This document shows, piece after piece, positions 20,505-31,565 of a stretch of 64,000 nucleotides of DNA. Where the stretch lies: NCBI RefSeq assembly GCF_004216695.1, contig NZ_SGXC01000001.1, positions 2,232,001 to 2,296,000 of the forward strand, given 5' to 3'. The notes beneath the pieces were generated by a model. The model was given only the letters and a program-made list of their open reading frames with translations. It ran no database searches and was not told where the DNA came from. Each line of letters begins with the position of its first letter. The stretch's first letter is position 1. A program made the position numbers and the translations under genes. This DNA comes from Pigmentiphaga kullae (GTDB lineage Bacteria > Pseudomonadota > Gammaproteobacteria > Burkholderiales > Burkholderiaceae_B).

Positions 20505-21446
20505 CTAGGCCGGCGCGCCGGACGCAGCGGCTTCCTCCAGGCATTCGATCAGCAGCGTCGTGCTGGGGGACATGGTCCGGTTGAGGTTCCAGGTGATGCC
20601 CAATGGGCGCATCAGCTTTGGGAAATTGAAGGGCAGCACCGACACCAGGCCCTGGCGCCGGTAGTGGTGGGCGATGTCGCGCGTCATGGTGGCGATGGCA
20701 TCGGTTTCCTGCAGATAGGCCAGCACGAACTGCACCGACAGCGCCTCGACGAAATCGGCCGGCATCGGGAAACCGTGCTGCTCGAAGGTGCGTTCCAGCG
20801 GTTCGTGCAGCAGTCCCTCGGACGAAGGCAGCACCCAGGGGCAGTGCATGATGTCCGCCCACTCCAGGCGCTTGCGCCGCGCCAGAGGATGACCGGGCCG
20901 GGCGATCAGCACCACCGGTTCCTGCGACAGCACCTTGCCGCCCAGTTCGGGCAAGGCGTGCTTCTCGGCCAGGCGTCCGACGATCAGATCCAGTTCGCCC
21001 TGAAGCAACTGCGGCAGCAGCCGCTCCATCGTGCCTTCGCGCAACAGGACGTTGGTCCTGGGCGCGCGTTGCTTGAGCAGCGCGACGCTGCGCGGCAGCA
21101 GGGCGGGCACGACGTTGGACAGCACGCCGACGCGGATGCGGCCCGTATCGCCGTCCAGCAAGCCCTTGAGTTCGTCCCGCGCCTGGGAAAAATCGTTCAG
21201 CAGCCGGCGCGCGTGGCGGATCAGGCATTCCCCGTAGAGCGTCGGCGTCACGCCTTTGGGGGTGCGCTCGAACAGCTTCAGGTCCAGCCCCTTCTCCATC
21301 TCGCCCAGCATCTTGGAGACGGCCGGCTGTGTGACGTTGATGTGGGCGGCGACCTTGCCGATGTGGCGCAGCTCGTCCAGCGCCACCAGCAAACGCAGGT
21401 GCCGGGGCCGCAATTCGTTCCGTATGTACCAGTCGAGCTGCGTCAT
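20505..21446 (-). CDS. LysR-family transcriptional regulator of the adjacent catabolic operon
   Basis: A 313-residue LysR protein. The helix-turn-helix reads LRHIGKVAAHINVTQPAVSK and is followed by MLGEMEKGLDLKLFERTPKG. The effector domain starts at RIRVGVLSNVVPALLP. I chose the ATG at 21446 (MTQLDWYIR) because the HTH sits at the usual distance from it. It is divergent from the catabolic operon at 21680-31565, with a perfect 18-bp palindrome between them. By the usual LysR logic it activates that operon in response to a pathway acid and represses itself. Confidence 0.93.
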   Translation of the reverse strand: MTQLDWYIRNELRPRHLRLLVALDELRHIGKVAAHINVTQPAVSKMLGEMEKGLDLKLFERTPKGVTPTLYGECLIRHARRLLNDFSQARDELKGLLDGDTGRIRVGVLSNVVPALLPRSVALLKQRAPRTNVLLREGTMERLLPQLLQGELDLIVGRLAEKHALPELGGKVLSQEPVVLIARPGHPLARRKRLEWADIMHCPWVLPSSEGLLHEPLERTFEQHGFPMPADFVEALSVQFVLAYLQETDAIATMTRDIAHHYRRQGLVSVLPFNFPKLMRPLGITWNLNRTMSPSTTLLIECLEEAAASGAPA

Positions 21447-21679: not shown

Positions 21680-22699
21680 ATGGGTCCGTCCCGTCCGTCA
21701 TCGATGTCCGCTCATTCTTCCGCGCGGCGCGCGGTGCTCGCGGCCGCCGCCGCGCTGGCGCCGCTGCTGGTCGCGCAACCGTGCCTGGTCCAGGGAAGCG
21801 ACGCGTTTCCATCCAAGCCGCTGCGGCTGGTCGTGCCCTTTGCGCCGGGCGGCGCGGCGGACGTGATCGGGCGTTCGGTGGCCGAGCAGTTGCAGCGCGA
21901 GCTGGGCCAGTCGGTGGTGGTGGTCAACCGCGACGGGGCCGGCACCATCGTCGGCGTGAACTATGTGGCGAAGGCGCCCGGCGACGGCTACACGCTGCTG
22001 CTGAGCGGCGACGCCGCTACCATCAACACGGCCAGCGGCCGCTCGCTGCCCTACAACTTCCTGCGCGAGCTGACGCCGGTCTCGGTGCTGTTCTCCGGCG
22101 CCCAGATCCTGCTGGTCAGCAAGGACAGCCCCTTCAAGACGCTGCAGGACATGGTGTCCTACGCGCGCGCCCACCCCGGCAAGCTGCGCTACGGTAGTTC
22201 GGGCATAGGCACCTCCATCCACCTGTCCGAGGCCTCGTTCAACGCCGCGGCCGACATCGAGGCGCTGCACGTGCCCTACCGGGGCGTGGCGCCGGCCATC
22301 ACCGATCTCATGGGCGGCCAGGTGGACTACGTGATCGCCGGTTCGTCGCTGGCCACGCCGGCCATCCAGAGCGGCCAGTTGCGGGCCCTGGCGATCACCA
22401 CCGCCAGGCGGTCGCCGATGCTGCCCGACATTCCGACCGCCAGGGAACAGGGCGTGGATGTCGAGACCATGGGGTGGTATGGGCTGTTCGTGCCGGCCAC
22501 GACGCCGCCGGCGATCGTCGCCAGGTTGAACGCCGCCACGCTGGCGGCGCTCAAGTCGCCGGAACTGTCCGAGCGCTTCAAGTCCATAGGCGGCGAAGCG
22601 CGCGGGACCTCGCCGGAAGAGGCGGGCGTTTTCGTCAAGGCCGAGATCCGCAAGTTCTCCGAACTGATGCGCCGGCTCAACATCAAGCTGGATAACTGA
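21680..22699 (+). CDS. Bug-family substrate-binding protein, first gene of catabolic operon
   Basis: A 339-residue exported binding protein. The ATG at 21680 has a GAGGAGACAACC ribosome site. A signal peptide (ARRAVLAAAAALAPLLVAQP) is followed by AFPSKPLRLVVPFAPGGAAD, the family start. It opens the operon that encodes acyl-CoA metabolism, so it probably captures the acid that the operon degrades. A second Bug gene ends the same operon. No membrane transport partners are encoded nearby. Confidence 0.92.
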   Translation: MGPSRPSSMSAHSSARRAVLAAAAALAPLLVAQPCLVQGSDAFPSKPLRLVVPFAPGGAADVIGRSVAEQLQRELGQSVVVVNRDGAGTIVGVNYVAKAPGDGYTLLLSGDAATINTASGRSLPYNFLRELTPVSVLFSGAQILLVSKDSPFKTLQDMVSYARAHPGKLRYGSSGIGTSIHLSEASFNAAADIEALHVPYRGVAPAITDLMGGQVDYVIAGSSLATPAIQSGQLRALAITTARRSPMLPDIPTAREQGVDVETMGWYGLFVPATTPPAIVARLNAATLAALKSPELSERFKSIGGEARGTSPEEAGVFVKAEIRKFSELMRRLNIKLDN

Positions 22700-22716
22700 T
22701 CGTGCAGGACATGCCC

Positions 22717-23508
22717 ATGGATAACCCCGCCTGCGAACCTGCCGAAGACACGGTGCTGGTGCGCCGCGAGGGCGCGGTGATGCACGTGTCGCTGAACCGG
22801 CTCGATGCCCGCAATGCCCTGAACACGCCGGTGCGCCAGGCGCTGGCTGCGGCGTTCCGGCAGGCCGAGGCCGACCCGGGCGTGAGGGCGGTGCTGGTGA
22901 CCGGGGAAGGGCGCCATTTCTGCGCCGGCGCGGACATACGCGAACTGCGGGCGCGGACCATGCTGGAAGCCGGGTGGGCGCCGGAGCGCCTGGACACGAT
23001 GGTCGAGGGTTTGTCCAAGCCGGTGATCGGCGCGCTGCACGGGTACGTGCTGGGAGGCGGACTGGAACTGGCGCTGGCGTTCACCGTGCGGCTGGCCTCC
23101 GAGGACTTCCGGGGCGGCTTTCCCGAGGTGAAGCTGGGCATCTTCCCCGCGCTGGGCGGCACGCAGCGCCTGCCGCGGCTGGTGGGGGAAGGGCGGGCAC
23201 TGGAACTGATGCTGCGCGGCCGCATCGTCGATGCCCACGAGGCACTGGGCATGGGCCTGGTGACCGAGATCGCGCCGGCCGGCGAACTGCGCCAGCGGGG
23301 CCTGGCGCTGGCGCAGGAACTGGCCGCGGGGCCGCCGGTGGCGATGCGCGCCATCATGGAGTGCGTCCGCCGCGCGGGCGACCTGGGGCGGGCCGACGGG
23401 CTCGACTACGAACGGCGCCTGTTCGGCATCGTCTGCGGCACCGAGGACAAGGCGGAGGGCGTGGCGGCCTGGCTGGAGAAGCGGCCACCGCGCTTCTCGG
23501 GCCGCTAG
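22717..23508 (+). CDS. Enoyl-CoA hydratase/isomerase family protein
   Basis: A 263-residue crotonase-fold protein. The oxyanion-hole segments are HFCAGADIRELR and VLGGGLELALAF. The catalytic Glu pair region reads GGFPEVKLGIFPALGGTQRLPRL, with one Glu in FPEVKLG. I chose the ATG at 22717 because AGGA sits 7 bases upstream; a GTG at 22702 would add five residues. It should hydrate a 2-enoyl-CoA to the 3-hydroxyacyl-CoA, feeding the thiolase-like gene of the same operon. Confidence 0.9.
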   Translation: MDNPACEPAEDTVLVRREGAVMHVSLNRLDARNALNTPVRQALAAAFRQAEADPGVRAVLVTGEGRHFCAGADIRELRARTMLEAGWAPERLDTMVEGLSKPVIGALHGYVLGGGLELALAFTVRLASEDFRGGFPEVKLGIFPALGGTQRLPRLVGEGRALELMLRGRIVDAHEALGMGLVTEIAPAGELRQRGLALAQELAAGPPVAMRAIMECVRRAGDLGRADGLDYERRLFGIVCGTEDKAEGVAAWLEKRPPRFSGR

Positions 23509-23535
23509 CCGGGCACCAGGACGGAGAACCTAGTC

Positions 23536-25341
23536 ATGAATCTGCAAGGCTTGCTGGAGCCGCGTTCCGTCGCCATCGCGGGGGCGTCGGCCGATCCCTC
23601 GAAGCTGTCCGGGATGATCCTGGGCTTTCTGTCGCGCAGCGGTTTCCAGGGGCGGGTCTACCCCATCAATCCCCGCTACGAGACCATCGCCGACATGCCG
23701 TGCTATCCGTCGGTCGAGGCCTTGCCCGAAGCGGTCGATCTGCTGGTGTGCGTGGTGCCCATCGCCGCCGCCTTCGATTCGATCGAGGCGGCGGCGCGCC
23801 GCGGCGTCCGGTTCTGCGTCCTGATGACGGGCGGCTTCGGCGAGGGGCGCAGCGGCGACGAAGGGCGGGCCCGCCTGGCGCGATTGCAGGACCTGTGCCG
23901 CGAGACCGGCATGCACGTGGTCGGGCCCAACACCGTCGGCATGGTCAATTTCCGCAAGCGGCTGCCGCTGACCTTCGCGGACTGGTACGGCCGGGACACC
24001 GGCCAGCGCGGCGGCGTGGCCATCGTCACGCACAGCGGCAGCGTGGGCGGCCTGATCTTCTCGTCGCTCCAGCTCAATCGCATAGGCGTGGACTACTGGA
24101 TAGGCCTGGGCAACGAAGCCACGCTGGAGACGGCCGATTTCATCGCCCACTTCAGCGCCGACCCGGACATCCACACCATCATCTGCTACATGGAAGGGAT
24201 ACGGGACGGGCGCAAGTTCATCGCCGCCGCCGAGGCGGCGCGGCGCACCGGCAAGCGTATCGTCGTGCTCAAGGCCGGCGAGTATCCCGATTCCGTGCGT
24301 TCCACGATCGCGCACACCGCCCGCCATCCCACCGACCGCGACGTCTACGCGGGCGTCTTCCGGCAGTTGGGCGTGATCCAGGTGGTGTCGCTGTCGGAAC
24401 TGAGCTATGTGATGACGCTGCTGACCAGCGTGGGCGACCGGCTGGGGCCGCGCGTGGGCATCATCTCCGCCTCGGGCGGCGCCTGCTCGGTCATCGCCGA
24501 TCACGTGATCCAGGCGGGGCTGGAGCTGCCCGAACTGCCGCCCGCGTTGCAACAGACGCTGGATCGCGGCATTCCGGTCTACGGCTCGTCCAGCAATCCG
24601 GTCGACCTGTCGGCCGACGTGGTGGCGCGCGGGGAAATCCTCGGGCACACGCTGGCGGCGCTGCGCGAGGACGACAGCATCAACGTCTGGATGTTGTTCG
24701 GGCGGCCCATCATCGACCGCTACTACCCCATGCTGATCGAGTTCGTGAACGCCACGGGCAAGGCCATGGTGGTGTGCTGCGGCGTGCCGCTGGCGCCCGA
24801 CGTCCACGCGGCCCTGGCCGAGCACGGCATTGCCGTGCTGCTCGATCCCGAGCTGTGCCTGCGCGCGCTGGCGCGGATCGCCTGCCGTCCGGCCGAAGAA
24901 CCCGTGCCCGCGCCGCCGCTGCCGGCGCGGACGGCGGACGCACGGGCCGTCCATGGCCGGCAGGCGGGCGAGCTGCTGGCGCGCCACGGGCTGGACGTCT
25001 CGGCGTCGGCCGTACCCTGGCTGCGGGTGGAGATCGCGCGGGACAGGGACTTCGGTCCGGTCATCATGGCCAACTGGCTGCCGGCGTACCGGGTCGGCAC
25101 GCACCGCGTGGTGCGCGCGCTGCCCGCTACCGGCGCGGACCTGCTGGCCCTGGTCGACGACCTGGGGGAACAGTTGCAGGAATGGCCGGCCGAGCCGGTC
25201 GATATCGAGGATGCGCTGGCCACCGTGGTAAGGGCCTACGAACAGTCTCCCGGCGTGCATGGACTGGGGGTCGAGTTCGGCGGCGCCGACGGACGGGTGG
25301 CGGTCTGCGCGGCGTTCCGGCGCCAGACGCAGGCCGGTTGA
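23536..25341 (+). CDS. NDP-forming acyl-CoA synthetase-like protein with reduced ATP-grasp part
   Basis: A 601-residue protein. Residues 1-130 are a CoA-binding Rossmann domain (LLEPRSVAIAGASADPSKLS), followed by succinyl-CoA-ligase-like flavodoxin domains with VTHSGSVGG. His260, in STIAHTARHPTDRD, aligns with the phosphohistidine of the family. The C-terminal 130 residues keep the last part of an ATP-grasp domain (RDFGPVIMANWL) but the N-terminal ATP-grasp lobe appears to be missing; full fusions run to about 700 residues. It may need a separate partner, or may act only as a CoA-transferring or binding protein. It ends 2 bases before the thiolase-like gene. Confidence 0.82.
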   Translation: MNLQGLLEPRSVAIAGASADPSKLSGMILGFLSRSGFQGRVYPINPRYETIADMPCYPSVEALPEAVDLLVCVVPIAAAFDSIEAAARRGVRFCVLMTGGFGEGRSGDEGRARLARLQDLCRETGMHVVGPNTVGMVNFRKRLPLTFADWYGRDTGQRGGVAIVTHSGSVGGLIFSSLQLNRIGVDYWIGLGNEATLETADFIAHFSADPDIHTIICYMEGIRDGRKFIAAAEAARRTGKRIVVLKAGEYPDSVRSTIAHTARHPTDRDVYAGVFRQLGVIQVVSLSELSYVMTLLTSVGDRLGPRVGIISASGGACSVIADHVIQAGLELPELPPALQQTLDRGIPVYGSSSNPVDLSADVVARGEILGHTLAALREDDSINVWMLFGRPIIDRYYPMLIEFVNATGKAMVVCCGVPLAPDVHAALAEHGIAVLLDPELCLRALARIACRPAEEPVPAPPLPARTADARAVHGRQAGELLARHGLDVSASAVPWLRVEIARDRDFGPVIMANWLPAYRVGTHRVVRALPATGADLLALVDDLGEQLQEWPAEPVDIEDALATVVRAYEQSPGVHGLGVEFGGADGRVAVCAAFRRQTQAG

Positions 25342-25343
25342 TC

Positions 25344-26489
25344 ATGGACCAGGCCTACATCGCCGGCGTGGGGGAATTGCCGCAGGGCCGGTCGCCCTTG
25401 CCGGACACCATGGCGCTGCATGCGGAGCTGGCCCGCCGCGCGCTCGAGGACGCCGGCATGGAACTGGCGCAGGTGGACGCGGTGCTGACGGTCCCGCCCC
25501 GCACCGACCTCTATCTGATCCACGCCGCCGCCCTGGCCGAACACCTGGGCATCGAACCCGCCGTGGCCTGGACCCTGGAAGCCGGCGGCGCGGCGCCCAT
25601 GGCGATGGTCGAGACCGCGCGCGGCCTGATACGCGGCGGCAGCGCGGCCACGGTCCTGATCGTGGCCGCCGACATGCCGCTGGGCGCCGCGTCGCGGGAC
25701 GCCTATGTGAAGACCCTGGCCGAGGCGGGGCCGGTGCATCCGGAATGGGAAGTGCCCTACGGTCCCACCGTTCCCGCGATGTTCGCGCTGGTCGCCCGTG
25801 CCTATGCGCAGCGCTGGGGCGGCACCGACGAACAACTGGCCGCCGTGGCGGTCCATGACCGGACGGCCGCGGCCGCGCATCCGAACGCGCATCACCGGGA
25901 GGCCATCGACGCGGCGGCCCATCGGTCCAGCCGACTGATCGCCGATCCGCTGCGTCTGCTGGACTGCGCGCCGGTGTCCGACGGCGGCGGCGCGCTGGTG
26001 GTGACCGGGGTGCCGGGCGCGCGCCGGGTGCCGGTCCGGGGCGCGGGATTCGCCGCCGGCCACATGCATCTGTCGGCGGCCGCATCGCTGACGTCATTCT
26101 CGGCCGGCAGGGCGCTCGAGGCGGCATTGCGGCAGGCGGGGGCAGACCGGGACGACATCGACCTGGCGCTGGTCTACGACTGCTTCACGATCGCCATGCT
26201 GGTGAACCTGGAGGACCTGGGGCTGGCGGGGCCGGGACGGGCGGGCAGGGGGTTCCTGGACGGCCGTTTCGGCCCGGTGGGCGCGCTGCCCGTGAACACC
26301 CACGGCGGCCTGCTGTCGCACGGCCATCCCGCCCGGGCCGGGGGCATCGGCAACGTGGTCGAGGCGGTCGTGCAATTGCGCGGCGAAGCCGGCGCGCGCC
26401 AGGCCGGCGAAAGGCGGCTGGCATTGGCGCATGGCATGGGCGGCGTGTTCGCCACGCACGGCGCACTGCTGCTGGGAGCGCCGCGATGA
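25344..26489 (+). CDS. Thiolase-fold protein without catalytic Cys, possible aldolase (Ltp2-like)
   Basis: A 381-residue protein of the SCP2-thiolase (lipid-transfer protein) family. The start at 25344 follows the synthetase stop directly. The nucleophilic Cys of thiolases is replaced: the segment reads LEAGGAAPMAM, with Gly81 at the Cys position. His residues of the NTHGGLLSHGHPARAG motif (320, 326, 328) and YDCFT (Tyr278) remain. Proteins of this type paired with a DUF35 partner, such as Ltp2 in steroid side-chain degradation, are retro-aldolases. The DUF35 gene follows with a 4-bp overlap. An aldolase role is inference. Confidence 0.8.
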   Translation: MDQAYIAGVGELPQGRSPLPDTMALHAELARRALEDAGMELAQVDAVLTVPPRTDLYLIHAAALAEHLGIEPAVAWTLEAGGAAPMAMVETARGLIRGGSAATVLIVAADMPLGAASRDAYVKTLAEAGPVHPEWEVPYGPTVPAMFALVARAYAQRWGGTDEQLAAVAVHDRTAAAAHPNAHHREAIDAAAHRSSRLIADPLRLLDCAPVSDGGGALVVTGVPGARRVPVRGAGFAAGHMHLSAAASLTSFSAGRALEAALRQAGADRDDIDLALVYDCFTIAMLVNLEDLGLAGPGRAGRGFLDGRFGPVGALPVNTHGGLLSHGHPARAGGIGNVVEAVVQLRGEAGARQAGERRLALAHGMGGVFATHGALLLGAPR

Positions 26490-26881
26490 TTTCCGTTTCT
26501 TCGGGACGGCTGGCGCCGTATCGCGAGGCGGCCGGGCGGGGCGTGCTGCTCTTGCCTCGCTGCGTCGATTGCGGGACGTGGCAATGGCCGCCCCGCGCCG
26601 CCTGCCGGCATTGCGGCGGCGCGCCGGACTGGCGCGAGGCCAGCGGCGGCGGGCGTCTGTCGACCTGGAGCGTGGTGACTCGCGCACCGCGGCCTGAATG
26701 CCAGGCCGACGTGCCCTACGTCGTGGCCTTCGTCGAGCTGGATGAAGGCGTGCGCCTGTTCACCCGCATCGTCGGCACCGGCGCCGGCGCGCTGCGTACG
26801 GGCCTGCGGGTGCGCTGCCGCTTCGCTCCGTCGCCCGAACCGGCCGTATCGATACCCGTATTCGTCGTTGCAGAAGGTTGA
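26486..26881 (+). CDS. DUF35 OB-fold / zinc-ribbon partner protein
   Basis: A 131-residue protein. The zinc ribbon has Cys26, Cys29, Cys40 and Cys43 (LPRCVDCGTWQWP, then CRHCGG). The OB-fold part follows (LSTWSVVTRAP, VPYVVAFVELDEGVRLFTRI). DUF35 proteins form complexes with thiolase-fold enzymes and channel or bind the acyl-CoA substrate. It overlaps the thiolase-like gene by 4 bp (ATGA), which supports a stoichiometric complex. It ends 1 base before the acyl-CoA dehydrogenase start. Confidence 0.9.
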   Translation: MISVSSGRLAPYREAAGRGVLLLPRCVDCGTWQWPPRAACRHCGGAPDWREASGGGRLSTWSVVTRAPRPECQADVPYVVAFVELDEGVRLFTRIVGTGAGALRTGLRVRCRFAPSPEPAVSIPVFVVAEG

Positions 26882-26882
26882 C

Positions 26883-28031
26883 ATGGATTACCTGATCCCC
26901 GCGGAGTTCGTGCAGTTCGCCGATCTGGCGCGCCAGTTCGTGCAGAAGGAGTTGTGGCCCCACGAAGAAGACGTGGAGCGCGCCGACCGCATGCCGCCCG
27001 ATCTGGCCCGCGGCCTGCGGGCGAAGGCGGTGGAACTGGGCCTGTTCGGCTTCAACATGCCGGAAGAGGCCGGTGGCCCCGGGCTGCCCTATCTGGCGCA
27101 GGTCCTGATACGCGAACAACTGGGGCAGGCGAGCGTGGCGCTGGCCGACATGGCGGGCCGTCCGCCCAAGGCCCTGCTGGCCTGCCGCGGCGAGCAGCGC
27201 GAACGCCTGCTGGCGCCCGCCGTGCGCGGCGAGCAGGTCTGGGCCTTCGCCCTGACCGAGCCGGGCGCCGGATCGGATGCCGGGGCCATCCGGACCCGCG
27301 CGGTCCGCGTCGAAGGCGGCTGGCGCCTGACCGGCACCAAGCATTTCATCTCGCACGGCAACCATGCCGACCGGATCATCGTGATCGCCAAGGCGCGGCG
27401 GGGCGACGGCGAAGCGCCGGCCGCCTTCGTGGTGGAGCAAGGCGCGCCGGGTTTCACCGTGGGGCGCGTGCATCGCAAGATGGGATGGCGCGGCTATCCC
27501 GTGTGCGAGCTGGTGTTCGACGAGGTGTTCGTGGCCGATGCGAACGTGCTGGGCGAGATCGGCGACGGCCTGCGGCTGGGGCTGGCCAACATCCTGGAGT
27601 CGCGCATAGGCGTGGCCGCGCACTGCGTGGGCATGGCCCAGCGCGCCTACGACTACGCGACCGAACACCTGCGCGTGCGGCGGCAGTTCGGGCGGGCGCT
27701 GGGCAGCTTCCAGGGCCTGCAATGGATGGTGGCCGAGATGGCGGTGGACATCGAGCAGTCGCGCGCCCTGCTCTATGCGGCGGCGCGCGAGATGGACCGG
27801 GGGGTGGACGCCCGCGCGGCGGTTTCCATGGCCAAGCTGTCGGCTACCGAGATGGGGGGCCGGGTGGCGGACCGCGCGCTGCAACTGCTGGGCGGCGCGG
27901 GCTACATGGCCGAATCGCCGGTGGAGATGATCTACCGCGATGTCCGCGCCTTTCGCATCGGCGAGGGTACGAGCGAGATCCAGAAGAATCAGATCGCGCG
28001 GGCATGCCTGGGCCGGGAGATGTTCGCATGA
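26883..28031 (+). CDS. Acyl-CoA dehydrogenase
   Basis: A 382-residue flavoprotein of normal length. FAD and substrate motifs are AFALTEPGAGSDAG and TGTKHFISHG. The catalytic base is Glu361 in FRIGEGTSEIQKNQIAR, at the position of the MCAD-type Glu. The ATG at 26883 has an AGAAGG ribosome site. It should introduce the 2,3 double bond that the enoyl-CoA hydratase of the operon then hydrates. Electrons would go to ETF, encoded elsewhere. Confidence 0.94.
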   Translation: MDYLIPAEFVQFADLARQFVQKELWPHEEDVERADRMPPDLARGLRAKAVELGLFGFNMPEEAGGPGLPYLAQVLIREQLGQASVALADMAGRPPKALLACRGEQRERLLAPAVRGEQVWAFALTEPGAGSDAGAIRTRAVRVEGGWRLTGTKHFISHGNHADRIIVIAKARRGDGEAPAAFVVEQGAPGFTVGRVHRKMGWRGYPVCELVFDEVFVADANVLGEIGDGLRLGLANILESRIGVAAHCVGMAQRAYDYATEHLRVRRQFGRALGSFQGLQWMVAEMAVDIEQSRALLYAAAREMDRGVDARAAVSMAKLSATEMGGRVADRALQLLGGAGYMAESPVEMIYRDVRAFRIGEGTSEIQKNQIARACLGREMFA

Positions 28032-29683
28032 CCGCGGCCGCGAACGGGCCGCTGGCCGACGTGGACGGCTGGACCCTGGGGCGCTTCGCCGACGAGATCG
28101 GCGCGCGTTTCGGCGATGGCCTGGCCCTGGTGGCCAGCGACCGGCAGCATGGTCCCGGCCTGCGCCGGTGGACCTACGCGGAACTGGCGCGCGATGCGTG
28201 CGCGCTGCAATGGGCGCTGATGCGGCAAGGCGTGCGGCCGGGCGACCGGGTCGGCGTGATGCTGTCGAGCTTTCCGGAATGGGTGCTGTATCTGTTCGCC
28301 GTCACGCGGCTGGGGGCGGTGTTCGTTCCGGTCAACCCGCGGTTCCGCGGCCGCGAGCTGCGGCACGTATTGGGCCATTCCGGCGCCCGCGCGCTGATCG
28401 CCATGGGCAGCTATCTGGGCCACGACTACGCCGGCCAGATCGCCGAGGCCCGCGCCGATGCGGCGCTGCCGGCGCTGGAGACCGTGATCGGCGTGCATAC
28501 GGCGCCCGCCGCGGATGCGCGGGACACGGCGGACCTGCTCGAAGCGGGCCGCCGGCGGCTGAGCGAGCGTGGCGCGCCGCCCCGCGCGGACGACGCCGAT
28601 GCCGTCGCGGCGTTGTTCTACACCTCGGGCACGACCTCGTTCCCCAAGGGCGTGCCGCTGACCCATGCGAACCTGCTGCCGCATTCGGTGCGAGGCGGGC
28701 GCTGGCTGGAGCTGGAGCCGGGCGAGGGCGTGCTGACGCTGTACCCGTTCTTCGGGATTTCGGGGGGCGCCAACAAGGTCCTGTCCACGCTGGGCGCCGG
28801 CGCGCGGCTGGTCTTCCAGGACAGCTACCGGCCGGACGAAGCGGCCGGGTTGTTGCGCTCGCAGCGCTGCACCGTGATCCATGGCGTGGACGTGCAGGTA
28901 CGCGAACTGATGGCGGCGTGCCGGCTCCACCCCCCGGGCGGCGAACCCGAACGCCGGGCCACCATCGCCTTCACCGCCGGACTGGACGAGGCGCTGGCGC
29001 GCGAGATGGGGCCCGGGCTGGGCATCCACCGTTTCATCCATGCCTACGGCATGACCGAGACCAATCCCATGATCCTGTACAACCGCCTGGACGACGCGTT
29101 CGAGGTCAGCGTGAGGGCGGGCGGCCGCGTGGCCGACGGCGTCGAGGTGCGCGTGGTCGACCCCGCTTCCGGCCAGGACAGAGCGGCGGGGCAGGAAGGC
29201 GAGATCGTGGTGCGCGGGCCGACGGTCATGCGGGGGTACTACAACGATCCCGAGTCCACCGCCGCGGCGTTTCGAAACGGCTGGTTCCATACCGGCGACC
29301 TGGGCGTGCGGACCGCGGACGGCTTCCTGTTCTACGTGGGCCGGCTCAAGGACATGCTGAAGGTGGGCGGTTTCAACGTGGCGCCGCAAGAGGTCGAAGA
29401 GCTGCTGCGGACCCACGAGGCTGTCGCCGACGTCGCGGTCGCGGCCGGCAGCGATCCGCGGCTGGGCGAGGTGCCCGTGGCATTCGTCAAGCTGCATCCG
29501 GGCATGTCGGCGGGCGCGGATGAACTGATCGCCTGGTGCCGCGTGCGCATCGCCAATTTCAAGACGCCGCGGGCCGTCTATTTCGTCGACGAGCTGCCCT
29601 ACCATACGGCGGCCAACGGTTCCAAGCTGCAGCGCCACGTCCTGCGCGAGTGGGCGCGCCGGCGCGAAGCCTCTATCCCCTGA
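28028..29683 (+). CDS. AMP-forming acyl-CoA ligase
   Basis: A 551-residue ANL-superfamily enzyme. The P-loop reads FYTSGTTSFPKGVPLTH, with Ser in place of the usual Gly after the second Thr. Other motifs are HAYGMTETNP, WFHTGDLGV, and the C-terminal FNVAPQEVEE. The adenylation Lys is in NGSKLQRHVLR. It overlaps the dehydrogenase gene by 4 bp. It activates the starting acid to its CoA ester with ATP, which makes the NDP-forming synthetase in the same operon look redundant or dedicated to another step. Confidence 0.93.
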   Translation: MTAAANGPLADVDGWTLGRFADEIGARFGDGLALVASDRQHGPGLRRWTYAELARDACALQWALMRQGVRPGDRVGVMLSSFPEWVLYLFAVTRLGAVFVPVNPRFRGRELRHVLGHSGARALIAMGSYLGHDYAGQIAEARADAALPALETVIGVHTAPAADARDTADLLEAGRRRLSERGAPPRADDADAVAALFYTSGTTSFPKGVPLTHANLLPHSVRGGRWLELEPGEGVLTLYPFFGISGGANKVLSTLGAGARLVFQDSYRPDEAAGLLRSQRCTVIHGVDVQVRELMAACRLHPPGGEPERRATIAFTAGLDEALAREMGPGLGIHRFIHAYGMTETNPMILYNRLDDAFEVSVRAGGRVADGVEVRVVDPASGQDRAAGQEGEIVVRGPTVMRGYYNDPESTAAAFRNGWFHTGDLGVRTADGFLFYVGRLKDMLKVGGFNVAPQEVEELLRTHEAVADVAVAAGSDPRLGEVPVAFVKLHPGMSAGADELIAWCRVRIANFKTPRAVYFVDELPYHTAANGSKLQRHVLREWARRREASIP

Positions 29684-29700
29684 TCCCCGGAGCAACCATC

Positions 29701-30531
29701 ATGCGCATCTGGCACCAGAGCTTTACCGTACTGCAGGACCTGCCGGCCTACGCCGACGCGCTCAAGCTGCGCATAGGCGAGGTGGTCCGGCCCGATACCG
29801 AAGTCGTCCTGCACGGGCAGATACCCGGCACCTATACCAGCGACTATCCGGGCTCGGACCTGGCCTACGGCGTGCTGTACTGGATGCACGGCCTGCAATG
29901 GTTGGCCGCGGCGCGCGAGGCGCAGCGGCAGGGCTTCGACGCGATGGTGCTGGCCAGCATCGCCGGCCCGATGGCGCGCGAGATCCGGACCATCGTCGAC
30001 ATCCCCGTGGTCGGCTACGGCGAGGCGGCGTTCAACCTGGCGGGCCTGTACGGCCGGCGCGCCGGCATGTTGTTCTTCATCAAGGAGAGGCTGGACTTCT
30101 GGCCCGAGCAGTTGCGCCACTGGGGGCTGGAGAACCGCTTCGCCGGCATCGAGCACGCGGGGGTGTCCTTCAAGGACGTGCTGGCCGGGCACATGGATCC
30201 GTCGCGACGCGATGCCGTGGTGGCCCGCATCGTCGAGCAGGGCGAGAAGCTGGTGCGCGAGACCGGGGCCGACGTCATCGTGCCGGGGGAGATGCCGATG
30301 AACCTGCTGCTGTCGAAGGCGGGAGTCGACCGGATAGGCGGCGCCACCGTGGTCGACGGGCTGGCCGTCTCGTTCAAGATGGCCGAGATGATGGTGGACC
30401 TGCGCCGCCTGAGCGGCATGCGGCCCAGCAACCATGGCTACTTCCACCAGTCGCCGGATCCGCGCCGCTTCGAGCAGGTGTTGCAGTTCTACGGCGTGTC
30501 GGATCTCGGCGCCAGGATTCCCGAGTGCTGA
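29701..30531 (+). CDS. Asp/Glu/hydantoin racemase-fold protein lacking both catalytic Cys
   Basis: A 276-residue protein starting 17 bases after the ligase. It has the family layout GFDAMVLASIAGPMAREIR then IPVVGYGEAAFNLAG. In active racemases Cys residues sit at the two acid/base sites. Here the first is Ser86 (LASIAG) and the second is Gly196 (IVPGEMP). The only Cys in the protein is the C-terminal residue. It is therefore probably not a racemase and may be a decarboxylase, a hydrolase-like enzyme or a binding protein. Its role in the operon is unknown. Confidence 0.75.
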   Translation: MRIWHQSFTVLQDLPAYADALKLRIGEVVRPDTEVVLHGQIPGTYTSDYPGSDLAYGVLYWMHGLQWLAAAREAQRQGFDAMVLASIAGPMAREIRTIVDIPVVGYGEAAFNLAGLYGRRAGMLFFIKERLDFWPEQLRHWGLENRFAGIEHAGVSFKDVLAGHMDPSRRDAVVARIVEQGEKLVRETGADVIVPGEMPMNLLLSKAGVDRIGGATVVDGLAVSFKMAEMMVDLRRLSGMRPSNHGYFHQSPDPRRFEQVLQFYGVSDLGARIPEC

Positions 30532-30566
30532 ACGCGGGACGCGAACAACGATAAAGGAGACCTGTC

Positions 30567-31565
30567 ATGTCGATCGAATGCGTGCGTCCCGCCGGGCGCC
30601 ACCCACCGCGCCGGCCTTGGGCGGCGCTGGTTGCCGGACTGCTGGTTGCCGGCGGCGCCCTGGCCCAGTCCTATCCGGTCCGTCCGGTCACCGTCATCAA
30701 TCCCTGGACGCCCGGCGGTCCGGCCGACGCCGTGGCGCGCCCCATCCTGCAGAAGCTGTCCGAACGCCTGGGGCAGCAGTTCGTGGTCGAGAACCGCGCC
30801 GGCGCCAACGGCGTGATCGGTTCGGCCATGGTCGCCCGCGCCCGGCCGGACGGCTACACGCTGCTGTTCTCGCACGTGGGGCCGATCACTATCAGCCCGG
30901 CGTTGCAGCGCGACATGCCCTACGACCCGGTCAAGGACCTGGCGCCCATCACCCAGGTGGTGTCCGCGCCGCTGGTGCTGGTGGTCCGGCCGCAGCTTCC
31001 CATCCACGACCTGGGCGAACTCATCGCCTACGCCAAGGCGCATCCCGGCAAGCTGTCCTATGGGTCGGTGGGGCCGGGCAGCACCACGCACCTGGCGGGG
31101 GCGATCCTGGGCAAGAAGGCGGGCGTGGAACTGCTGCACGTGCCGTACAAGGGCGCGGCCCCCGTCATCACGGACATGCTGGGCGGGCAGATCGACATGG
31201 CGTTCCTGAACATCTCGGGGGCGGTGGCCTATCTGAAAAGCGGGCAGTTGCGCGGCATCGCGGTCAGCACGCGCCGGCGGTCGGCGCTGCAGCCGGAACT
31301 GCCGGCCATTTCCGAGCGGTTTCCGGACTACGAGATCAATTCCTGGTACGGGATGATGGCGCCGGCCGGGACGCCGCAGGCGATCATCGACAAGCTGCAG
31401 GGCGAGATCGCCGCCATCGTGAAGCTGCCGGACGTCGCGCGGCAACTGGAGGGGCTGGGGCTGGCGCCGGAAGGCACGACGCCCCGGCGCTATGCCGAGC
31501 AGATCCAGGCGGACCTGGCCCGGTGGCGCGAGGGCGTGAAGGCAGCGGGGCTGACGCCGGAGTGA
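30567..31565 (+). CDS. Bug-family substrate-binding protein, last gene of catabolic operon
   Basis: A 332-residue exported binding protein. A Sec signal peptide (WAALVAGLLVAGGALAQS) is followed by YPVRPVTVINPWTPGGPADA. Other family motifs are ENRAGANGVIG and ARPDGYTLLF. The ATG at 30567 has an AAAGGAGACC ribosome site. It is the second Bug protein of this operon, and may bind a different acid or the same one at a different affinity. It is convergent with thyA, with 7 bases between stops. Confidence 0.92.
   Translation: MSIECVRPAGRHPPRRPWAALVAGLLVAGGALAQSYPVRPVTVINPWTPGGPADAVARPILQKLSERLGQQFVVENRAGANGVIGSAMVARARPDGYTLLFSHVGPITISPALQRDMPYDPVKDLAPITQVVSAPLVLVVRPQLPIHDLGELIAYAKAHPGKLSYGSVGPGSTTHLAGAILGKKAGVELLHVPYKGAAPVITDMLGGQIDMAFLNISGAVAYLKSGQLRGIAVSTRRRSALQPELPAISERFPDYEINSWYGMMAPAGTPQAIIDKLQGEIAAIVKLPDVARQLEGLGLAPEGTTPRRYAEQIQADLARWREGVKAAGLTPE

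What the first reader, a model, noticed from the sequence alone, without database searches (positions are those of the whole stretch)
21680..31565. Nine-gene acyl-CoA operon that looks like an unknown aldolytic side-chain degradation route
The genes run Bug protein, enoyl-CoA hydratase, NDP-forming synthetase-like protein, Cys-less thiolase, DUF35, acyl-CoA dehydrogenase, AMP-forming ligase, Cys-less Asp/Glu-racemase-like protein, second Bug protein, mostly with overlaps or gaps under 40 bases. From known chemistry of ligase, dehydrogenase and hydratase, the product would be a 3-hydroxyacyl-CoA. The DUF35-paired thiolase fold without a Cys would then cleave it by retro-aldol reaction rather than thiolysis, as Ltp2 does in steroid side-chain breakdown. 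No 3-hydroxyacyl-CoA dehydrogenase is in the operon, which fits an aldolase. No steroid ring genes are present, so the substrate is probably another branched or aromatic acid, imported with the Bug proteins.
Basis: partly seen in the sequence, partly recalled or inferred. Interest (0 to 1): 0.82.

Follow-up and report, generated by a model that had tools for sequence, protein, structure and literature searches.

The report
Non-steroid CoA-ester aldolase operon
A bacterial gene set probably activates an unknown organic acid and splits it with an enzyme built like a thiolase but carrying the catalytic pair of a known bile-acid aldolase, next to two partner proteins whose usual catalytic parts are missing.

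Summary
The nine genes are real, co-directional and tightly packed (gaps -4 to 35 bp). A core set (ADP-forming-ligase-like, thiolase-like, DUF35, AMP ligase) recurs in nine genomes including the window's, from Alcaligenaceae to a Rhodospirillales bin. The retro-aldol reading is partly supported, with a correction. The thiolase-like protein has Gly82 where thiolases have the nucleophilic Cys, and carries Tyr278-Asp-Cys280-Phe: the Tyr-Cys dyad shown to be catalytic in the bile-acid aldolase CtSal, not the Tyr-Tyr pair of Ltp2. DUF35 is closest to the aldolase partners ChsH2 and Shy. No relative of the genome's 3-hydroxyacyl-CoA dehydrogenases lies in the 13-21 kb fetched around these operons, but two are elsewhere in the genome. 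Two further oddities: the ADP-forming-ligase-like protein lacks its ATP-grasp domain wherever it stands with the AMP ligase, and the 'racemase' has Ser86/Glu197 at the usual Cys positions. Against the simple pathway: the hydratase and the LysR gene are found at only four of nine operons. Two sister genomes carry deletion scars. The substrate is unknown. Non-steroid cleavage of this type is already reported (ibuprofen ipfDE), so this is a new variant of a known kind. No structure model was obtained.

The parts
20505..21446 (-). divergent LysR-type regulator (likely regulator of the operon here)
   Evidence: PF03466 and PF00126; 99% in L054 and L056, 71% in Advenella L055; no relative in the fetched DNA of L057-L060 and L062
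21680..22699 (+). Bug/TctC solute-binding protein 1
   Evidence: PF03401, 230 bits
22702..23508 (+). enoyl-CoA hydratase, crotonase fold; GGGLEL and PEVKLG align with GGGLEL and PEINLG of 5zai
   Evidence: PF00378; PDB alignment
23536..25341 (+). ADP-forming acyl-CoA ligase alpha-like protein without ATP-grasp; conserved His in AHT/SHT
   Evidence: PF13380, PF13607, no PF13549; alignment
25344..26489 (+). thiolase-fold protein, predicted acyl-CoA aldolase: Gly82, Tyr278-Asp279-Cys280-Phe281, His328
26486..26881 (+). DUF35 partner: zinc ribbon (CVDC, CRHC) plus OB fold
   Evidence: PF12172, PF01796; best PDB match ChsH2-DUF35 6ok1_B, then Shy-DUF35 9myr_B
26883..28031 (+). acyl-CoA dehydrogenase, single gene, nearest to short-chain types
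   Evidence: PF00441/PF02770/PF02771; PDB relatives
28028..29683 (+). AMP-forming acyl/aryl-CoA ligase
   Evidence: PF00501, PF13193; nearest solved fatty-acyl/feruloyl/4-coumarate-CoA ligases
29701..30531 (+). Asp/Glu-racemase-fold protein with Ser86 and Glu197 at the two Cys positions
   Evidence: PF01177; alignments
30567..31565 (+). Bug/TctC solute-binding protein 2
   Evidence: PF03401, 243 bits

Best explanation
This is a catabolic operon, probably LysR-controlled, for an imported organic acid. Bug proteins bind the acid. The AMP-forming ligase makes its CoA ester, the acyl-CoA dehydrogenase makes the 2-enoyl-CoA, and a hydratase (the operon's ECH here, presumably one encoded elsewhere in most relatives) makes the 3-hydroxyacyl-CoA. 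The thiolase-fold/DUF35 pair then cleaves it by a retro-aldol reaction to acetyl- or propionyl-CoA plus an aldehyde or ketone. Tyr278 would take the proton from the 3-hydroxyl and Cys280 would reprotonate the CoA enolate, as proposed for CtSal, with His328 in the place of CtSal Gln352. Gly82 replaces the nucleophile, so no acyl-enzyme can form. The ACD-like protein lacks the ATP-grasp domain and probably keeps a CoA- or acyl-handling role, activation having passed to the AMP ligase. The racemase-like protein probably acts as a one-base (Glu) isomerase or lyase on the free acid or a product. Shown: gene content, conservation, motifs, missing domain. Inferred: every reaction, the substrate, and the roles of the last two proteins.
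For: YDCF and Gly82 are read in 9 of 9 operon genomes; His328 in 9 of 9 (in one genome the gene is split over two contigs). Y278, D279, C280, F281 and H328 are invariant in 7 of 7 rows. PMC12329534 (abstract, passages and part 1 of the Discussion read) reports CtSal Tyr302 and Cys304 essential in YDCY, with Gly89 at the nucleophile site. DUF35 is nearest ChsH2-DUF35, then Shy-DUF35. No relative of the genome's 3-hydroxyacyl-CoA dehydrogenases in 11 locus records of the nine genomes. In one search, loci with a full ATP-grasp ACD have no ligase homolog within 8 kb (0 of 8), while the 8 window-clade genomes examined there have the ligase and no ATP-grasp (8 of 8); the window clade is one lineage, so this is one event. 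Two relatives of the racemase-like gene sit with HMG-CoA-lyase-like genes (L117, L118).
Against: CtSal's Gln347, Gln352 and Gln161 are not kept (Leu323, His328, Pro144). His328 is the thiolase residue. ECH and LysR are found at 4 of 9 operons only (L057's contig begins at the ACD gene and cannot be judged). The tree puts the clade with neither CtSal nor Ltp2 (quick tree, long branches). In the 28-row Gly-type set around it only 16 rows have Cys at position 280; 9 have Ser and 3 Ala, and Ser or Ala there killed CtSal (PMC12329534), so the near relatives do not all share the dyad. The genome has two strong 3-hydroxyacyl-CoA dehydrogenases elsewhere, so beta-oxidation in trans is possible. No structure model and no assay.
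Confidence: 0.57

Rival explanations
1. Ordinary beta-oxidation with the 3-hydroxyacyl-CoA dehydrogenase and a true thiolase supplied from elsewhere; the operon's thiolase-like protein is a degenerate scaffold or CoA-ester binder.
For: Two strong 3-hydroxyacyl-CoA dehydrogenase matches and a Cys-bearing thiolase-type protein (L015, NACAS/HDCF) exist in the genome.
Against: The Tyr-Cys dyad is kept in all nine operon genomes with a DUF35 gene beside it, and no such dehydrogenase was found beside any of them. A decaying scaffold would not be expected to keep the dyad.
Confidence: 0.17
2. The thiolase-like/DUF35 pair does another Cys-nucleophile-free reaction on a CoA ester, such as retro-Claisen hydrolysis of a 3-ketoacyl-CoA or decarboxylation.
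For: His328 of the GHP motif is kept as in thiolases. PMC12329534 (Discussion part 1 read) cites very slow malonyl-CoA decarboxylation by the YDCF protein TbSLP.
Against: The same text reports no acetyl-CoA from malonyl-CoA with CtSal and proposes that TbSLP is an aldolase. No 3-ketoacyl-CoA-forming enzyme is among the nine genes.
Confidence: 0.14
3. The pair works in the synthetic (aldol) direction and the operon builds rather than degrades a compound.
For: Aldolases are reversible in principle (general knowledge).
Against: Two solute-binding genes, an acyl-CoA dehydrogenase and repeated deletion in sister genomes fit catabolism better.
Confidence: 0.05

Closest known systems
CtShy-CtSal bile-acid side-chain aldolase, Comamonas testosteroni (PDB 9MYR; PMC12329534)
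   Same: thiolase fold with Gly at the nucleophile site, YDC[Y/F] dyad, DUF35 partner
   Different: no steroid context known; His328 for Gln352, Leu323 for Gln347, Pro144 for Gln161; DUF35 is a separate gene with four ribbon Cys (CtShy is Cys3His1); hydratase is crotonase-type, whereas Shy is a MaoC-DUF35 protein
TcLtp2-ChsH2 (PDB 6OK1)
   Same: fold, DUF35 partner, no nucleophile, first Tyr
   Different: YDHF instead of YDCF; second catalytic Tyr344 is His here
Ibuprofen ipfD/ipfE (PMC9195938)
   Same: non-steroid 'thiolase' gene pair; pathway described as CoA ligation, dioxygenation, then a retro-aldolase step releasing propionyl-CoA (passages read; the DUF35 nature of ipfE is recalled)
   Different: ipf makes a dihydrodiol with a ring dioxygenase; here dehydrogenase and hydratase, no dioxygenase among the nine genes
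Trypanosoma SCP2-thiolase-like protein TbSLP (PDB 5AB4-7)
   Same: YDCF motif (PMC12329534)
   Different: no associated DUF35; function unproven
ADP-forming acyl-CoA synthetases (TIGR02717, PDB 4XYL)
   Same: CoA-binding and succinyl-CoA-ligase-like domains, aligned His kept
   Different: no ATP-grasp; 300 bits against a cut-off of 567
Asp/Glu racemase superfamily (KpAllR, OpaE 9QBX, arylmalonate decarboxylase)
   Same: PF01177 family
   Different: Ser86/Glu197 instead of Cys/Cys or Gly/Cys

Membership tests
Sal-type acyl-CoA aldolase | no nucleophilic Cys (Gly at that site) | tested here: met
   Gly82 in 9 of 9 operon genomes
Sal-type acyl-CoA aldolase | Tyr and Cys of the YDC motif | tested here: met
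   YDCF in 9 of 9 operon genomes
Sal-type acyl-CoA aldolase | Gln347, Gln352 and Gln161 around the dyad | tested here: not met
   Leu323, His328, Pro144 by alignment
Sal-type acyl-CoA aldolase | falls in the Sal clade | tested here: not met
   own 9-row clade, 100*; CtSal outside (only one Sal row, long branch)
Sal-type acyl-CoA aldolase | retro-aldol activity on a 3-hydroxyacyl-CoA | not testable with these tools
   needs an assay
Ltp2 steroid aldolase | YDHF and second Tyr344 | tested here: not met
   YDCF and His328
SCP2/acetoacetyl-CoA thiolase | nucleophilic Cys | tested here: not met
   Gly82; the genome's own L015 and PDB 7yvy have the Cys there
ADP-forming acyl-CoA ligase | ATP-grasp_5 domain | tested here: not met
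   none over cut-off in the window and 6 of 6 orthologs scanned; present in 4 of 4 ACDs scanned from paralogous clusters
ADP-forming acyl-CoA ligase | CoA-binding domain and conserved His of the alpha half | tested here: met
   (role of the His recalled)
Asp/Glu racemase | two catalytic Cys | tested here: not met
   Ser86/Glu197 in 8 of 8 rows including the window's; Thr/Glu in 12 of 12 relatives at 39-49%
Arylmalonate decarboxylase | Gly74/Cys188 | tested here: inconclusive
   no arylmalonate decarboxylase row was aligned; but the window protein has no Cys at either racemase Cys position (motif from PMC4996985 passages)
Complete beta-oxidation operon | 3-hydroxyacyl-CoA dehydrogenase in the operon | tested here: not met
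   no relative of the genome's two strong copies in 11 locus records of the nine genomes (SDR types not searched)

The most novel reading that the evidence does not exclude
A third catalytic architecture of thiolase-fold aldolases (Tyr-Cys dyad plus thiolase-type His) serving a non-steroid acid. It works with a repurposed ADP-forming ligase lacking ATP-grasp that handles the acyl-CoA or the cleaved product without ATP, and with a new Ser/Glu enzyme of the Asp/Glu racemase fold, together an undescribed aldolytic pathway. The Gly-type, DUF35-linked proteins with YDCF in other operons would be further unrecognised aldolases, and those with YDSF or YDAF something else again.
Probability: 0.27. Interest if true: 0.72.

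Novelty: new variant of a known kind. Interest (0 to 1): 0.5.

Why it matters
Genes annotated 'acetyl-CoA acetyltransferase' or 'thiolase family protein' beside an OB-fold/DUF35 gene can lack the thiolase nucleophile. Of the nine other matches in this genome, seven have no Cys at that position (six Gly, one Ser; one of the Gly rows has a Cys at the next residue). If those with the Tyr-Cys dyad are aldolases, the annotation of many catabolic operons is wrong, and C-C bond-cleaving biocatalysts are waiting to be assayed. The operon is a compact, testable case. It also suggests a swap of one CoA-activation system for another, with the old ligase kept without its ATP domain.

Tried and rejected
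Steroid link: no HsaA over the cut-off in the genome (best 335 bits against 450); no control genome was over the cut-off either, and other steroid markers were not searched. Ltp2 membership: rejected on motif. Classical thiolase: rejected on Gly82. Cys-pair racemase: rejected on Cys loss. The thiodipropionate paper was a dead end for the racemase-like gene ('racemase' does not occur in it). Plasmid relatives gave contexts but no substrate. The LysR-Bug1 intergenic region was not analysed. One genome search and two paper runs were left unused.

Changes made on checking: identity range corrected to 59-93%; LysR and ECH restated as 4 of 9; the 28-row set re-read in full, which showed that His328 is common to the set and that 12 of its 28 rows lack the dyad Cys; therefore the novel-case probability was lowered from 0.30 to 0.27 and the main confidence from 0.58 to 0.57, and the decarboxylation/retro-Claisen rival was raised from 0.13 to 0.14.

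Statements that this operon is not described rest on searches of an open-access library only, judged from their listings.
Full report
OBSERVATION. The window holds nine same-strand genes from 21680 to 31565, separated by 2, 27, 2, -4, 1, -4, 17 and 35 bp. Pfam gives TctC, ECH_1, CoA_binding_2 plus Succ_CoA_lig, Thiolase_C_1, zf-ChsH2 plus OB_ChsH2_C, acyl-CoA dehydrogenase, AMP-binding, Asp_Glu_race and TctC. A LysR gene (20505-21446, minus strand) diverges from the first Bug gene.

CONSERVATION. One pattern-based scan of 84,980 species genomes, which reaches close relatives only, returned 8 loci. With the genome searches this gives nine genomes with an ortholog, window included: window, L054, L055 (Advenella kashmirensis), L056/L061 (one assembly), L057, L058, L059, L060 and L062. 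Identity of the thiolase-like protein is 59-93%. In the genus, 3 of 11 genomes have the ortholog (a fourth match at E 1e-80 is a 44% paralog). In a family sample, 13 of 151 match at E 1e-80 but only the window's and G134 (68%) are of this clade. In an order sample it is 2 of 399 at E 1e-90. Gene content within the fetched DNA: ACD-like, thiolase-like, DUF35 and AMP-ligase genes in 9 of 9; acyl-CoA dehydrogenase beside them in 8 of 9 (in L060 it lies on the other strand about 6 kb away); racemase-like in 8 of 9 (not in L060); ECH in 4 of 9 (window, L054, L055, L056). LysR is in the same four and has no relative in the fetched DNA of L057, L058, L059, L060 and L062. L057's contig starts at the ACD gene, so its upstream side cannot be judged. 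L058 and L060 add a luciferase-like gene, a second acyl-CoA dehydrogenase and a CoA-transferase III gene.

GAIN AND LOSS. The operon lies between a dienelactone-hydrolase gene (beside a dihydrofolate reductase gene) and a thymidylate synthase gene. Blastn of the window against sister genomes shows that G153 is collinear up to window 20664 and resumes at 31461. G073 is collinear to 20795, keeps pieces at 30869-30920 and 31282-31468, and resumes at 31547. Both keep remnants of LysR and Bug2: two deletions with different ends. In G043 and G155 the flanking genes' matches lie about 90 and 60 bp apart, and in G151 about 3.2 kb apart, with no operon sequence found. In G135 only the thymidylate synthase gene region matched, and in G096 and G116 no thymidylate synthase match reached 1e-80. 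The operon is dispensable.

THIOLASE-LIKE PROTEIN. All nine operon genomes have Gly at the nucleophile site (aligned to the Cys of 7yvy and of the genome's own L015), YDCF, and His328 in GHPAR (in the L056/L061 genome the gene is split over two contigs and each piece was read alone). The C-terminal HGMG[GA] was read in the 8 genomes. Y278, D279, C280, F281 and H328 are invariant in 7 of 7 rows. PMC12329534 (abstract, passages and part 1 of the Discussion read) reports by mutation that Tyr302 and Cys304 of YDCY are essential in CtSal, that Gly89 sits at the nucleophile site, and that TcLtp2 instead uses Tyr294 and Tyr344. The window protein has the CtSal dyad, but His328 at Gln352/Tyr344, Leu323 at Gln347 and Pro144 at Gln161 (TcLtp2 also has Pro there). 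Best PDB profile matches are 4u4e (unassigned 'thiolase', itself YDSF), 9myr (CtSal), 7yvy (Cys-bearing) and 6ok1 (Ltp2). In a quick tree of 37 rows the window clade (9 rows, 100*) lies within a 28-row set at 96*; CtSal and Ltp2 fall outside, with long branches. All 28 rows of that set have Gly at the nucleophile site and His at position 328. At position 280, 16 have Cys, 9 Ser and 3 Ala. So His328 is a feature of the whole set, and 12 of 28 relatives lack the dyad Cys, whose change to Ser or Ala abolished CtSal activity. That speaks against reading the whole set as Sal-like aldolases. DUF35 keeps CxxC twice and is nearest the DUF35 partners of Ltp2 and Sal.

WIDER FAMILY. Besides itself the genome has 9 matches to the thiolase-like protein. 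Seven have no Cys at the nucleophile position (six Gly, one Ser; L010 has a Cys one residue later), one (L015) is Cys/HDCF, and one (L018) is a partial match resembling a ketoacyl synthase III (the last label is recalled from its motif).

ACD-LIKE PROTEIN. It matches the alpha half of ADP-forming ligases (4xyl, 2csu) at 300 bits against a TIGR02717 cut-off of 567. It keeps the aligned His of the HT motif in 9 of 9 rows. It has no ATP-grasp_5 over the cut-off in the window or in 6 of 6 orthologs scanned; L060 shows a sub-cut-off stretch of profile 105-187 only. Four of four ACDs scanned from clusters with 42-47% thiolase-like paralogs have the domain. One search looked at 32 locus records (L031 repeats L055 and L063 repeats L054) within 8 kb of the thiolase-like gene. 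Eight records with a full ACD show no homolog of the window's AMP ligase (one, L032, is cut by its contig end). The eight window-clade genomes there all show the ligase and no ATP-grasp. Of the 14 remaining records, 11 show a CoA-transferase III homolog (one of them weak, with a ligase too), two only a ligase homolog, and one none of these. The window clade is one lineage, so this is one change, not eight. I infer that the AMP ligase took over activation.

RACEMASE-LIKE PROTEIN. It is the most conserved product in the ortholog comparisons (77-99% identity to the window's). At the two Cys positions of 2eq5 it has Ser86 and Glu197, in 8 of 8 rows including the window's. The KpAllR entry 3qvk reads Ser at both positions, which I take to be active-site mutants; KpAllR's Cys79/Cys184 are from PMC12661438 passages. 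Twelve of 12 relatives at 39-49% have Thr and Glu, four at 29-31% have Cys and Asp, and one 23% row was unclear. Two further rows (28% and 38%) were dropped because their start motif was not found. Relatives occur in 44 of 268 family genomes at E 1e-25 and in 2 of 369 class genomes at 1e-20. Of 13 such loci fetched, one (L127) gave no such gene in my ORF pick. L117 carries HMGL-like, dehydratase-like and AMP-ligase-like genes, and L118 carries CoA-transferase III and HMGL-like genes. That fits a place in aldolytic acid catabolism but does not show it.

DEHYDROGENASE TEST. The genome has 8 matches to 3HCDH_N, two of them strong, at C1:1903463 and C1:2951227, about 350 kb and 690 kb from the operon. 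Neither of these two finds a relative (tblastn, E 1e-3) in 11 locus records of the nine operon genomes, or in 10 of 11 further records (L031-L041, L031 being the Advenella operon again); L037, a paralog locus, has one. SDR-type dehydrogenases were not searched; L060 has an SDR gene about 9 kb upstream.

MECHANISM. The best reading is: import, ligation, dehydrogenation, hydration, then retro-aldol cleavage by a Tyr-Cys dyad. Ligase, dehydrogenase and hydratase chemistry follows from known families; cleavage follows from the motif match to CtSal; the substrate, and the roles of the ACD-like and racemase-like proteins, are inferred. The weakest link is the hydratase, which most relatives do not carry beside the operon.

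KNOWN OR NEW. The kind is known: Sal, Ltp2, and the ibuprofen pathway with its ipfDE 'thiolase' (PMC9195938, passages read). New here are the non-steroid dehydrogenase/hydratase context, the Tyr-Cys dyad together with His328, the missing ATP-grasp and the Ser/Glu racemase-like partner. Eight open-access literature searches listed no paper that I could recognise as describing this operon.

LIMITS. No structure could be predicted. Catalytic roles of the ACD His and of the thiolase GHP His are recalled, as is the name Bug for the TctC proteins. The organism name of the window was not given by any tool.

Noticed in passing
L130 (G073) and L131 (G153): Two sister genomes carry remnants of LysR and Bug2 at the operon's site, with different deletion ends.
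   Followed up: yes
L058:11771-15012: Radical SAM/CofH-type (FO-synthase-like) and F420-dependent NADP oxidoreductase genes directly downstream of the operon in a betaproteobacterial bin, with a luciferase-like gene upstream: possible cofactor F420 use in this pathway's relatives.
   Followed up: partly
L060:15539-17383: A second ADP-forming-ligase-like protein without an ATP-grasp match near the operon in a Rhodospirillales bin.
   Followed up: no
L056 end of match and L061 start of match: The operon in assembly SAGV5 is split inside the thiolase-like gene across two contigs; the L061 junction reads like a sequencing adapter (recalled), so probably an assembly fault.
   Followed up: partly
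L117-L129: Racemase-like relatives in the family stand beside FAD flavoprotein-, SDR-, isochorismatase- and Bug-like genes in many of these loci (only a few checked by Pfam), with Thr/Glu or Cys/Asp at the racemase Cys sites; function unknown.
   Followed up: partly
L075 and L076: Plasmid-borne Gly-type thiolase-like/OB-fold/full ACD/Bug clusters next to a gene annotated 'acyclic terpene utilization AtuA family protein'.
   Followed up: no
L059: A metagenome bin titled Bordetella parapertussis whose thiolase-like protein is 67% identical to the window's; the species label may be wrong.
   Followed up: no
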